From positions 1,364,001 through 1,428,000 of the forward strand of contig NW_008805071.1 of assembly GCF_000004825.1 (NCBI RefSeq): a stretch of 64,000 bases of DNA, given 5' to 3'. The position numbers and the translations under genes were made by a program. Under the pieces are notes generated by a model. That model did not search any database, had not been told where the DNA came from, and saw only the letters and a list, made by a program, of their open reading frames with translations. Positions 1 to 27,224 of this stretch are shown here, in pieces (positions within the stretch are counted from its first letter, which is position 1; each line of letters begins with the position of its first letter). This DNA is from Heterostelium album PN500 (lineage: Eukaryota; Evosea; Eumycetozoa; Acytosteliales; Acytosteliaceae).

Positions 1-3000
1 TTGTTGTTGGTAGTAGTTCTGTTGTTGAGGTTGTTGTTGTTGGTTTGCCATTTGTGGTTGTTGTTGTTGGGTCTGTTGTTGTGGTTGTTGCACACCAACC
101 TGATAGTAAGGTTGTTGTTGAGTTTGTTGTTGTTGAGTTTGTTGAGCTTGTTGATTTTGTTGAACTTGTTGTTGTTGGTACTGTTGTTGTTGTGGTTGTT
201 GCAGTTGTTGCTGAGGAGATTGTTGAATATTTACAGTCTGTTGAACTTGACCTGGAATCTGTTGTTGAACTTGACCTGGAATCTGCTGTTGAATTTGGCC
301 GGGAATCTGCTGGACTTGACCAGGTAACTGACCGGCTTGTTGTCTTGCCCGAAGAATATGCTGTTGTTGAGGAGTCAATGTTTGTTGTCCCATTTGTATT
401 GGGTTGGCTTTTTGTTGCATCGCTGCAGCGTTAGCGGCAAATTGAGGATTTGGTCTTTGGAATTGTCCAGCCATTCCCATCTGTCCAGGAACTTGTTGAC
501 CAATTTGCTGGCCTGGAATTTGTTGTTGTCCAGGAACCTGTTGTCCGACTTGCATCTGACCTGGTATTCCTTGCATCGGTGCAACTTTGTGAGTGGCTTG
601 ATTGATTTGTTGGACACCGACTCCTTGTTGACCTGCTTGCTGGTATTGTACTTGCATTGGGTGTTGTTGCACACCAGTGTTCTGTTGTTGCTGTTGTACC
701 TGCTGAACCTGTTGTGCTTGTTGTTGCTGTTGTTGTTGCTTCATCAATGCTTGCATTTGCTGAGCTTGTTGTGGGGTGAACTGATTCGGAATTTGAGCGC
801 CAGCTTGCAATCCAGTGAAGTTTTGTTGAGTTGGCTGTTGTCCTTGTTGATTTTGTTGTTGTTGTTGAGTCTGTTGGTTCTGTTGTTGTTGAGCAGCGGC
901 AGCGGCAGCGGCTTGCTGCTGTCGTTGAAGCATCAACTGGTACTGAGGATTCATCATACCGATATTGGCTTGTTGGTTTGGTTGCTGAACCATTCCTGCT
1001 TGCTGTGGAATAACTCCACCTGCTTGTTGGACGACACCGACCTGCTGGTTGGCTGCTTGTTGGGTCTGCTGCTGTACCATTCCGGCTTGTTGTGGAATGA
1101 CACCTCCGGTTTGTTGCGGCTGCTGCTGTGCGATACCTGCTTGTTGTTGAATACCTAGAGATTGCTGGTTGTTAGGTTGAGACTGTTGCTGTTGAAGAAT
1201 TCCAACTTGTTGTTGCGTTGGATTAGTAGAAGTAAAATCTTGATGTGTACCTGCCATTTTATGAATTGCCGGTGGTGGATTACCAACGGTTTGCTGAAGA
1301 AAACTTACAACGTTCTTGTTGATGGTTGGTGGTGTCGGTCGATTCTGTTGTTGCTGTTGTTGTTGCTGCTGTTGCTGCTGTTGTTGTTTAGCAGCTTGCT
1401 GTTGTTGAAATAGTTGCTGTTGCTGTAGTGCGTACAGCTGTTGTTGTGTATTCTGTTGCTGGACACCAACCTGTTGTCCAATGTTGGCAATGGGCTGGTG
1501 TGGCTGTTGGACCGCCATTCCGGTGACCTGACCAACTGCATGTTGTGCCTGCTGACCACCTACAATGCCACCCTGTTGTTGAAGTGCCATTGCTTGTTGT
1601 GCTGCCACGTTGCCAACCAGTTGTTGAGGATTTGTCGATGCCATGACTTGTTGTGGTGTGAATGCTTGTGAGGGTGATGGTGAAGGAATAGTCATCTGAG
1701 TTGGTGTATTGACCATTCTTGTTGGTTGAGTTGGTGTCAGTGGATTGATAGGTGTGTGAGGTGCCGGTTGTTGTGGAGTATGTTGCTGTTGAGCTGCCTG
1801 TTGTTGTTGCTGTTGCAATAGCATTTGATGTTGTTGTAAAATTTGTGCTTGGTGTTGATTAAATTGTGGTGGTTGTAACTGTTGTGTTGGTGTCTGCACT
1901 CCAACGGCGTGGAGGGGCGATGCAACGGATGGTTGGTTTTGTATTTGAACCTGTTGTTGATGCAATTGCTGAGGAGTATGGTGTTGTTGAACATGTTGAT
2001 CTTGAGGTGTGCCGATTTGATGTACGATTGGTTGTTGTTGCTGTTGTTGTTGGATCTGTTGTGGATGTGTCATCTGTGCAGGTGAAGTGGCTGTGTTCAA
2101 CTGTGAATGTGTTGCAGTGGTTGGCGTGTGGACAGGCGAGTGTTGTTGAATAGGTGATTGATGTTGTTGTGCAGTCAATGGTTGCATCGGTGAATTATGT
2201 ACTGGAATATGTGCAGCTTGTTTTTGAATATGCATGGGTTGTGGCTGCTGCATAGTTGATTGTTGTACTTGCATCGGTTGAACTGGAACTTGTTGTTGCT
2301 GCTGCTGTTGCTGTTGTTGTTTTTGCATCGATGTTGGAGTGGATGGGTGAGGCGATGGAACAGCATGCTGAATGGGTGGTGAAGTCTGCATCTGTTGTAT
2401 GTTAGGAGGTTGCTTGTGTACGACACCAGTTGGTGTTGTAGGTGTTGTGATTTGATGTACGATTGGTGGTTGTTGCATTTGTTGTGGATGTTTCTGATGT
2501 TGTTGTGAAATAGGACTTGGTTGTTGTTGCTGTTGCTGATGTATTTGTGGAACGGGTTGCTGTACGAGTTGTGGTTGTTGCTGTTGTTGGAGAGGTGGAT
2601 GTGCATGTGCTTGTTGTGCATTCGTAGCAGCAATGTTTGGTGGCAGATTAGATGGTTGGAGCATAGGTGGTGAGGGTTGATGATGCATTGCTTGCTGTGC
2701 AGTTTGTGCTGCATGTTGTTGTTGAGCTGCTGCTGTTGCTTGTTGCTTTTCAACAGGTTGTTGTTGTTGCTGTGTAGATGACGATGCACTCGCTGCAGTT
2801 GCTTGTTGTGCATTATGTTGTTGAATTGTCGATTGCTGTTGTTGCTGCTGCTGCTGCTGTTGGATTGGCTGAGCAATAGGTTGTGGTGGTAACTGTTGCT
2901 GCTGTATTCTCAAACCATTTCCAAGCATTGTTGCAGAGAGGATATCACGCAAAGTATTTGTCTGCACATTGGAAGTAGATTTCGCCAGTTTGAATCTCTG

Positions 3001-22523: not shown

Positions 22524-24776
22524 ATGTCATCAACAATGAATAATTGGTTATCCCATCCAATGGAAGAACTAAATGGTCTTAAGCATCATTTCGATGAGAC
22601 ATTGAAGAACTGGACTTCCTCTTTGACTCATCCAACATCGGAACCAACCGATTGGGGTTGGAAACCCAGAATGGATGTCTGTGAATCCAAGGACAACTAC
22701 AAAATCATCCTTGAATTGCCAGGTTTCCAACGTGATGATTTGGATGTCCAAGTCAATGGACGTTTCCTATCGATCAAGGGTAGTAAATTTGAAAAGTCCA
22801 CCGATGAATGGAAATTCCATCGTCGTGAAAGATATTCAGGTGGTGAATTCCATCGTGCTGTTGCATTACCAGAAGGTAATTACTATTTTAAATTATTTAT
22901 TTCTATTCTATTTTTCTAACAATTTCTATTTTTTTTATTCTATTTTCTCTATTTATATTTTTTAGGAATTGATGGATCATCTATCCAAGCAAAATTCCAA
23001 GGTGGTATGTTGACTCTTACCATTCCAAAGACTGGAGGTAAGAACACTCAACACATTACTCTCTTGGGAAGTGAGGAACACTCCAACCTCCGTTCAGTCA
23101 TTGAAGCCGAGGAAGCAGAGAGAAGAAGAAGAATCCAAGATTTCAATCCAACCTACTTGAAATCCGGTGTCAATAGTAAGATTGGATCGTTCATGGAGGA
23201 GGGATTCGGAAATAGAAGACTCTTTGGATTGGACAAGGATCTTGCCAAGAACTCCAATGAGAATCGTATCATGTCCAAGAGATTGGAGATGAACGAACGT
23301 GATCGTCGTGTTCGTGACAAGCGTGGTGAAGATCAGAAGAAGCTGTTGGCCAACAAGGTTTCAAAGATGGTCAAACCAAACAGCAGTGTCCAACTCCAAA
23401 AGTTGAAGCATGTACCACTCTTCAAGTCATCTCATCAAATGGAGGAGAAGGAACGTACCGATCGTATGCGTGACAAACGTGGTCAGGAAATCTCAAAGTC
23501 CAACGCCAAGAAGGTATCCAATATGATCAAGTCAAGTGGTCGTCATCAACTCAGACGTACTCCATCCAAATCTTCATTCCACCCAAGCGGTAAGAACTCA
23601 TTCCACAAGAACACCTCCAAGTTTGCTCAGATCCGTGTACACCCACACACTGAGCCATTCCACGGAAAGAAGTCTTGTTTGGCCGTTCACCAAATGGAAG
23701 AGAAGGAGAGAAACAGAAGAATGGCTGACAAGAATGGACAGCAACTCGCCAAGAAGAATGCCAAGAAGATCTCTGATATGGTCAAGAGAAGTGGAAAGAA
23801 ATCACTCCACCATGTCTCTCGTCCATCATCTTCATTCTCAAGAATTCCAATCACTACTGGAAGCAGCAGCAGTAAGTACAACTCTCACAGCTTCAAGTTC
23901 TCCAACTTTGGAAACATGAACACTCAAAAGATCAATGCCTGTAGACACATGGACAAGGTCGAGGAGAAAGAGAGAAACAGAAGACTCGCTGACAAGAATG
24001 GACAGCAAATCGCCAAGAAGAATGCCAAGAAGATCGCTGATATGGTAAAGAAGAGCGGTGGAAAATCACGTCTCCACCCATCTCCACACAGCTCATCCAA
24101 GAGAGACATTCATCACCACACATCTACTCATCGTACCATCTCCTTGGAAGAGAAAGAAAGACAAAGAAGATTGAAAGACAAGAAGGGACAAGCTGACGCC
24201 AAGAAGAATGCTATGAAGATCTCCAAGATGGTCGAGAGAGAAGGAAACAGAGCCAACCTCCACAAGGGTTCCACCAACCTCTCAAAGATCAACGCCGGTA
24301 AACACATGAACAAGATCGAAGAGAAGGAGAGATCCAGAAGAATCGCCGACAAGAAGGGAATGGCCGATTGCAAAAAGAATGCCAAGAAGGTATCTGACAT
24401 GATCAAGAAATCAGAGGGTGTAAATATGTTGAAGGTTAACCACGACAGTCCAATGAAGCATCATGACAACAGACAGTTGGATCTCATCGAGGAGAAAGAG
24501 AGAACCAGAAGATTGAAAGACAAGAAGGGTCAAGTCGACGCCAAGAAACTTGCCAATCTCATCTCACAGATGGTCAAGGGAAGCGGTGGAAAAACTCATC
24601 TCAATCCACACCCATTGAGTGCCACCAAGATGGAGTACAATAAGAGTACCAACAAATTCCTCGGTCAATTGGAAGAGAAGGAAAGAGAAAGAAGATTGAA
24701 AGACAAGAAGGGACAGGCTGATGCTAAAAAGACTGCCAAGAAGATTGCCGGAATGATTGGTCGTGCTTCATGTTAA
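22524..24776 (+). CDS. Small heat-shock protein (Hsp20/alpha-crystallin) fused to eight basic repeats, 720 aa
   Basis: Exons 22524-22875 and 22966-24776. Residues about 46-140 are an alpha-crystallin domain: WGWKPRMDVCESKDNYKIIL, ELPGFQRDDLDVQVNGRFLS, RRERYSGGEFHRAVALPEG, then GGMLTLTIPK (the conserved 'A/GxLxLxxPK' strand). Normal Hsp20 proteins end soon after; this one continues for about 570 residues. From residue 226 there are eight copies of a roughly 34-residue unit, consensus EEKERxRRLxDKKGQxDAKK then xAKKISxMVKxSGGK, at nucleotides 23289 onward, separated by Ser/His/Lys-rich spacers. The repeats are hydrophilic, highly charged and predicted helical. Coding sequence is much less AT-rich and uses preferred codons (CGT, AAG, GGT, ATC), suggesting high expression. 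The chaperone part is certain; the repeat function is unknown. Confidence 0.88.
23289..24773 (+). repeat. Eight-fold protein-level repeat array in the sHSP fusion gene
   Basis: Cores begin near residues 226 and 686 for the first and last copies. Units 3 and 4 are almost identical (EEKERNRRMADKNGQQLAKK versus EEKERNRRLADKNGQQIAKK), pointing to a fairly recent duplication; units 1 and 2 are the most diverged. Spacers vary from about 8 to about 50 residues. Confidence 0.88.

Positions 24777-25151: not shown

Positions 25152-27224
<2,073 letters not shown>

What the first reader, a model, noticed from the sequence alone, without database searches (positions are those of the whole stretch)
22524..24776. 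Small heat-shock protein fused to an eight-copy basic helical repeat array
An intact alpha-crystallin domain is followed by about 570 residues with eight copies of an EEKERxRRLxDKKGQxDAKK-type unit. I know of no sHSP with such a tail (established: sHSPs are normally 15-40 kDa). The hydrophilic Lys/Glu/Ala-rich units recall LEA-type desiccation proteins or RNA/tubulin-binding repeats. Highly biased codons suggest abundance. One inference is a stress or spore protectant combining a chaperone with a disordered/helical shield; another is a chaperone tethered to a filament or nucleic acid.
Basis: partly seen in the sequence, partly recalled or inferred. Interest (0 to 1): 0.78.

Follow-up and report, generated by a model that had tools for sequence, protein, structure and literature searches.

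The report
Small heat-shock protein with basic tail
A slime-mould gene fuses an ordinary small heat-shock chaperone to a long, strongly basic tail with eight repeated segments; it has the same build as a slime-mould protein already shown to gather into droplets with the help of polyphosphate and to be made during spore formation, so it is probably a longer relative of a known kind.

Summary
Two exons (22524-22875, 22966-24776) encode 720 residues, 82.6 kDa: an alpha-crystallin domain (Pfam HSP20, E 1.3e-18), then 565 residues of pI 10.5 and net charge +78. The tail holds eight ~35-residue units that shuffles do not reproduce and whose protein sequence varies less than their silent sites. Of 14 other sHSP genes found in this genome, none has such a tail in frame.

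The claim that no such sHSP is known fails. D. discoideum HSP48 (PMC6584373) has an alpha-crystallin domain (pI 5.72) and a basic disordered C-terminal region (pI 10.69) that drives condensates; these shrink, and the protein falls, without polyphosphate kinase 1. Its RNA rises over 1,000-fold in fruiting bodies, not on heat. The window's genome has a PPK1-type kinase.

Best reading: an HSP48-type, polyanion-gathering spore chaperone, longer and with an ordered repeat. Tail homology to HSP48, hsp69 or hsp83 could not be tested: no eukaryotic collection is held, and the folding queue stayed full. New member of a known kind; interest modest.

The parts
22524..22875 (+). exon 1: N-terminal arm and most of the alpha-crystallin domain (aa 1-117 plus one base)
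   Evidence: HSP20 41.4 bits alone
22876..22965 (+). intron, GT...AG, with an in-frame stop
22966..24776 (+). exon 2: end of the alpha-crystallin domain, basic tail, stop codon
22677..23045 (+). alpha-crystallin (HSP20) domain, aa 52-144, interrupted by the intron
   Evidence: Pfam PF00011 E 1.3e-18, 67.4 bits
23280..23390 (+). repeat unit 1 (aa 223-259), the most divergent
23436..23546 (+). repeat unit 2 (aa 275-311)
23691..23801 (+). repeat unit 3 (aa 360-396)
23955..24065 (+). repeat unit 4 (aa 448-484)
24141..24251 (+). repeat unit 5 (aa 510-546)
24312..24422 (+). repeat unit 6 (aa 567-603)
24483..24593 (+). repeat unit 7 (aa 624-660)
24666..24773 (+). repeat unit 8 (aa 685-720), runs to the C terminus

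Best explanation
This is an HSP48-type dictyostelid small heat-shock protein: an ATP-independent holdase domain carrying a long, multivalent, strongly basic C-terminal region. The eight Lys/Arg-rich units, joined by Ser/His/Asn-rich stretches, most likely bind a polyanion (polyphosphate first, RNA as alternative) and so gather the protein into cytosolic condensates during fruiting-body and spore formation. There the alpha-crystallin domain holds unfolding clients, and polyphosphate may be stored. Shown here from sequence: the domain, the tail, its charge, the repeat and its lower replacement than silent divergence, its uniqueness among the sHSPs found in this genome, and a polyphosphate kinase gene in the same genome. 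Inferred by analogy with D. discoideum HSP48: polyanion binding, condensation, client holding and spore-stage expression.
For: Same order and charge split as HSP48: N-terminal part pI 6.16 and tail pI 10.5 here, against 5.72 and 10.69 for HSP48. Deleting the HSP48 C-terminal region abolishes puncta, while the C-terminal region without the alpha-crystallin domain still forms them. In PPK1-null cells HSP48 puncta and protein level fall. HSP48 RNA rises >1,000-fold in fruiting bodies and did not increase on heat stress (both n = 2); its gene is a late prespore gene down-regulated in spaA- cells. The window's genome has one PP_kinase match, E 8.9e-58. Computed tail charge +78.5 at pH 7.4. Eight units kept as protein. 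The paper also lists an hsp83, close to 82.6 kDa if that number is a mass (my inference).
Against: No sequence comparison with HSP48, hsp69 or hsp83 was possible; no eukaryotic collection is held. The HSP48 paper does not describe this repeat. FoldIndex of 540 tail positions unfolded but also 103 of 130 positions before the tail, so it does not discriminate here. In PPK1-null cells diffuse GFP-HSP48 fell too, so polyphosphate may act there by stabilising the protein rather than by driving condensation. The HSP48 work used expressed GFP fusions. Absence of a heat-shock element within 600 bases upstream says little: 9 of the 12 upstream regions scanned had none. No expression data for this species are held.
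Confidence: 0.6

Rival explanations
1. The repeat units are helical modules that tether the chaperone to a specific protein or filament (actin, tubulin, a spore-wall or nuclear structure), so the holdase is targeted rather than condensed.
For: The 10 invariant columns include non-basic positions (Glu, Asp, Gly, Ala, Met), which suggests a shape beyond mere charge; 28 of 28 unit pairs show pN below pS; units favour helix over the rest of the tail by composition.
Against: Sequence searches find no known binding repeat: Pfam, NCBIfam and PDB sequences (one match at E 0.17, taken as chance). HSP48, of the same build, forms membraneless puncta that did not appear to colocalise with nucleus, lysosome or trans-Golgi.
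Confidence: 0.2
2. The tail acts as a hydrophilic desiccation shield (LEA-like), protecting dried spores without binding a particular polyanion.
For: Tail is long, 16% Lys and 7% Glu, without Trp and with 0.5% Tyr; HSP48's gene is a late prespore gene.
Against: No LEA family match in Pfam at E<=1. The strong net positive charge and position-specific conservation are not expected of a bulk shield (inference).
Confidence: 0.12
3. The basic tail binds RNA or DNA, making a nucleic-acid-bound chaperone.
For: Net charge +78, 25% Lys+Arg in the tail.
Against: No nucleic-acid-binding family in Pfam at E<=1; for HSP48 two programs predicted no RNA-binding domain. The polyphosphate dependence of HSP48 does not exclude RNA.
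Confidence: 0.15

Closest known systems
Dictyostelium discoideum HSP48 (DDB_G0280215; PMC6584373)
   Same: N-terminal alpha-crystallin domain of lower pI followed by a highly basic C-terminal region; social amoeba; PPK1-type polyphosphate kinase in the genome.
   Different: This protein is 82.6 kDa, not about 48 (mass inferred from the name), and its tail is a defined eight-unit repeat; the HSP48 region is described as basic and disordered, with no repeat mentioned. Tail homology untested.
D. discoideum hsp83 (DDB_G0288861) and hsp69 (DDB_G0283911)
   Same: Listed as newly identified alpha-crystallin-domain proteins; hsp83 agrees in mass if its number is a mass.
   Different: No sequence or functional description seen; the relationship is a guess from size.
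Canonical sHSPs of the same genome (nearest: locus L017)
   Same: 40.9% identity over residues 46-137.
   Different: All 14 others found stop within 9 residues after the HSP20 match; this one continues for 576 residues after its match.
Yeast Hsp42
   Same: An sHSP whose disordered regions control sequestration of misfolded proteins (as told in the discussion of PMC6584373).
   Different: It uses a prion-like region, a different kind of extension; no sequence comparison was made.

Membership tests
small heat-shock protein (HSP20) family | alpha-crystallin domain | tested here: met
   PF00011 E 1.3e-18, 67.4 bits, cut-off 20.8; exon 1 alone matches 6 PDB sequences at E<=0.001, all sHSPs by name
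small heat-shock protein (HSP20) family | C-terminal I-X-I/V motif after the domain (recalled) | tested here: inconclusive
   A QHITLLG segment (I-T-L) lies at the expected place, read by eye
small heat-shock protein (HSP20) family | small size (about 12-43 kDa, recalled) | tested here: not met
   82.6 kDa. Size is a naming convention and HSP48 exceeds it too, so I call it an alpha-crystallin-domain protein of sHSP descent rather than a typical sHSP
HSP48-type condensate chaperone | alpha-crystallin part of lower pI plus highly basic C-terminal region | tested here: met
   pI 6.16 and 10.5 against 5.72 and 10.69
HSP48-type condensate chaperone | disordered C-terminal region | tested here: inconclusive
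   FoldIndex negative at 538 of 540 tail positions but also at 103 of 130 before it; structure prediction never ran (queue full, first try, last)
HSP48-type condensate chaperone | PPK1-type polyphosphate kinase present in the organism | tested here: met
   PF02503 E 8.9e-58 at G000:C24:661722-662252
HSP48-type condensate chaperone | tail sequence homologous to HSP48/hsp69/hsp83 | not testable with these tools
   no eukaryotic sequence collection is held
HSP48-type condensate chaperone | condensate formation, polyphosphate dependence, induction in fruiting bodies | not testable with these tools
   needs experiments or RNA-seq
LEA desiccation proteins | match to an LEA family profile | tested here: not met
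   Pfam at E<=1 lists only PF00011 and PF17886, both HSP20-type
tubulin-binding repeat proteins | match to a tubulin-binding repeat profile | tested here: not met
   Pfam at E<=1 lists only PF00011 and PF17886

The most novel reading that the evidence does not exclude
The tail is not a featureless disordered region but a sticker-and-spacer array: eight discrete helical polyanion-binding modules separated by His-rich stretches, giving a sequestrase whose condensation is set by module number, polyphosphate level and cytosolic pH as spores go dormant. His makes up 9.6% of the tail outside the units and 0.3% inside, and computed tail charge rises from +78.5 at pH 7.4 to +92.3 at pH 6.0. That the spore cytosol acidifies is assumed, not taken from a call.
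Probability: 0.25. Interest if true: 0.6.

Novelty: new member of a known kind. Interest (0 to 1): 0.35.

Why it matters
If it behaves like HSP48, chaperone condensates that depend on polyphosphate would not be confined to one species, and the regular eight-unit tail would let valence be tested unit by unit, which a featureless disordered tail does not allow. It would tie together chaperone action, polyphosphate storage and dormancy.

Tried and rejected
Two-gene (no splice) reading: rejected, because removing the intron removes an in-frame stop, keeps the frame, and raises the HSP20 score from 41.4 to 67.4 bits.

Repeat elsewhere: the exon-2 protein (E<=1), one unit (E<=10) and the last four units (E<=10), sought in G000, hit only this gene; only the best candidates are scored there. 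The exon-2 protein found no confirmed relative in prokaryote genome contigs (4 pattern matches, none confirmed), viral contigs (8, none confirmed) or plasmids, and no convincing PDB sequence (one match at E 0.17; none). These collections hold no eukaryotic genomes, so they say nothing about other dictyostelids.

Promoter clues: the three-box heat-shock-element scan was negative but uninformative (9 of 12 regions had none; the window gene and 11 of the 14 other sHSP genes were given). The window gene's upstream had one ACACCCA (0 in the other 11) and five GT/CA-rich hexamers (0-2 in the others). Both element definitions are recalled. ACACCCA was dropped as chance (8 in the window against 4.7 expected, reached by 11 of 100 shuffles); the hexamer count was not tested against chance. 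One search listed no paper that I opened for a consensus.

Literature: 8 searches, in open-licence PubMed Central papers only. PMC6584373: outline, Results and Discussion read, passages elsewhere. PMC5923282, PMC5519678 and PMC8418117 (a reference-list entry) in passages only. Others in listings only. PMC5519678 names an ant transcript 'ddb_g0288861-like' with no domain listed; too thin to use.

Structure: one attempt with the exon-2 protein and ten with the unit alignment met a full queue. The ribosomal L6 search was not used.

Full report
What is there. At 22524-24776 two exons join across a 90-base GT-AG intron into one 720-residue frame. Unspliced, the frame stops at 22919. The spliced protein scores 67.4 bits against HSP20 over residues 52-144, against 41.4 for exon 1 alone.

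The tail. After the alpha-crystallin domain, residues 156-720 carry net charge +78 and have pI 10.5; residues 1-155 have pI 6.16. Eight units with 10 invariant columns sit 52-88 residues apart, so they are separated by linkers rather than packed head to tail. The core pattern is found 8 times, and at most once in any of 5000 letter shuffles. Units carry 33% Lys+Arg, 0.3% His and 0.3% Pro; the rest of the tail (linkers, plus the stretch before unit 1) carries 9.6% His, 14.8% Ser and 4.8% Pro. Units hold better helix formers than the rest of the tail (mean 0.40 against 0.60 kcal/mol; 0 of 10000 permutations as large). In 28 of 28 unit pairs silent sites differ more than replacement sites (means 0.62 and 0.31).

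The family in this genome. The HSP20 search gave 19 matches, which I collapse by position to 15 genes, this one included; it is a lower bound, because introns split matches. All 14 others end in frame within 9 residues after the match (introns further down were not modelled); one of them, in L011, has in-frame stops. The nearest of them by tblastn is in L017, 40.9% identity over query residues 46-137. The repeat was found nowhere else in the genome at E<=10.

What is known. Santarriaga et al. 2019 (PMC6584373; Results and Discussion read; passages) describe D. discoideum HSP48: an N-terminal alpha-crystallin domain of pI 5.72 and a predicted disordered C-terminal region of pI 10.69. The C-terminal region is needed for cytosolic condensates of the GFP fusion and, without the domain, still gives them. 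Condensate size and number fall in PPK1-null cells, but so does the protein level. RNA rises more than 1,000-fold in fruiting bodies, does not rise on heat stress, and nearly disappears on germination. Their Table 1 also lists hsp19, hsp69 and hsp83. Yamada et al. 2018 (PMC5923282; passages) report DDB_G0280215, the HSP48 gene, as a prespore gene expressed after 16 h and down-regulated in spaA- cells.

Reading. From the same build and charge split, and with a PPK1-type polyphosphate kinase in the genome (E 8.9e-58), the likeliest function is a polyanion-gathering chaperone of the spore stage. Every step past the anatomy is by analogy. What may be new is the regularity of the tail: eight conserved, possibly helical modules rather than an amorphous region. 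The HSP48 paper's main text uses 'repeat' only for simple sequence repeats in general and in its reference list, but I could not check the HSP48, hsp69 or hsp83 sequences, which may hold the same units.

Codon use. On an index built from seven actin/HSP70 frames of the genome, the gene scores 0.55; 7 of the 14 other sHSP genes were scored, at 0.31-0.46; ten neighbouring ORFs score 0.22-0.64, one of them above this gene; the reference frames themselves score 0.63-0.83. This fits moderate to high expression at some stage.

Limits. No eukaryotic sequence collection, no RNA data and no structure prediction (11 tries, queue full) were available. Of 10 other ORFs of the window scanned with Pfam, 7 matched a family (PDCD2/MYND, MFS, C2H2 zinc finger, GPR180/TMEM145, E1-E2 ATPase, ankyrin repeats, papain-type protease) and 3 none; I see no functional clue in them.

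Noticed in passing
L011 about 1720-1970, minus strand (G000:C7): A near copy of the sHSP gene of L010 with in-frame stops, apparently a pseudogene (by eye).
   Followed up: no
L020 (G000:C24:1308000-1317500) and L019 (G000:C14): Three closely similar sHSP genes in about 6 kb and a fourth on another contig, apparently a recent expansion, each with an acidic Ser-rich insert inside the alpha-crystallin domain (by eye).
   Followed up: no
L009 1869-3017 minus; L010 1777-2571 minus: sHSPs with long Gln/Arg/Lys/Glu-rich N-terminal extensions before the alpha-crystallin domain, the mirror image of the window gene (by eye).
   Followed up: no
window 25152-25673, minus: Convergent neighbour: a C2H2 zinc-finger ORF with His-rich repeated stretches.
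   Followed up: no
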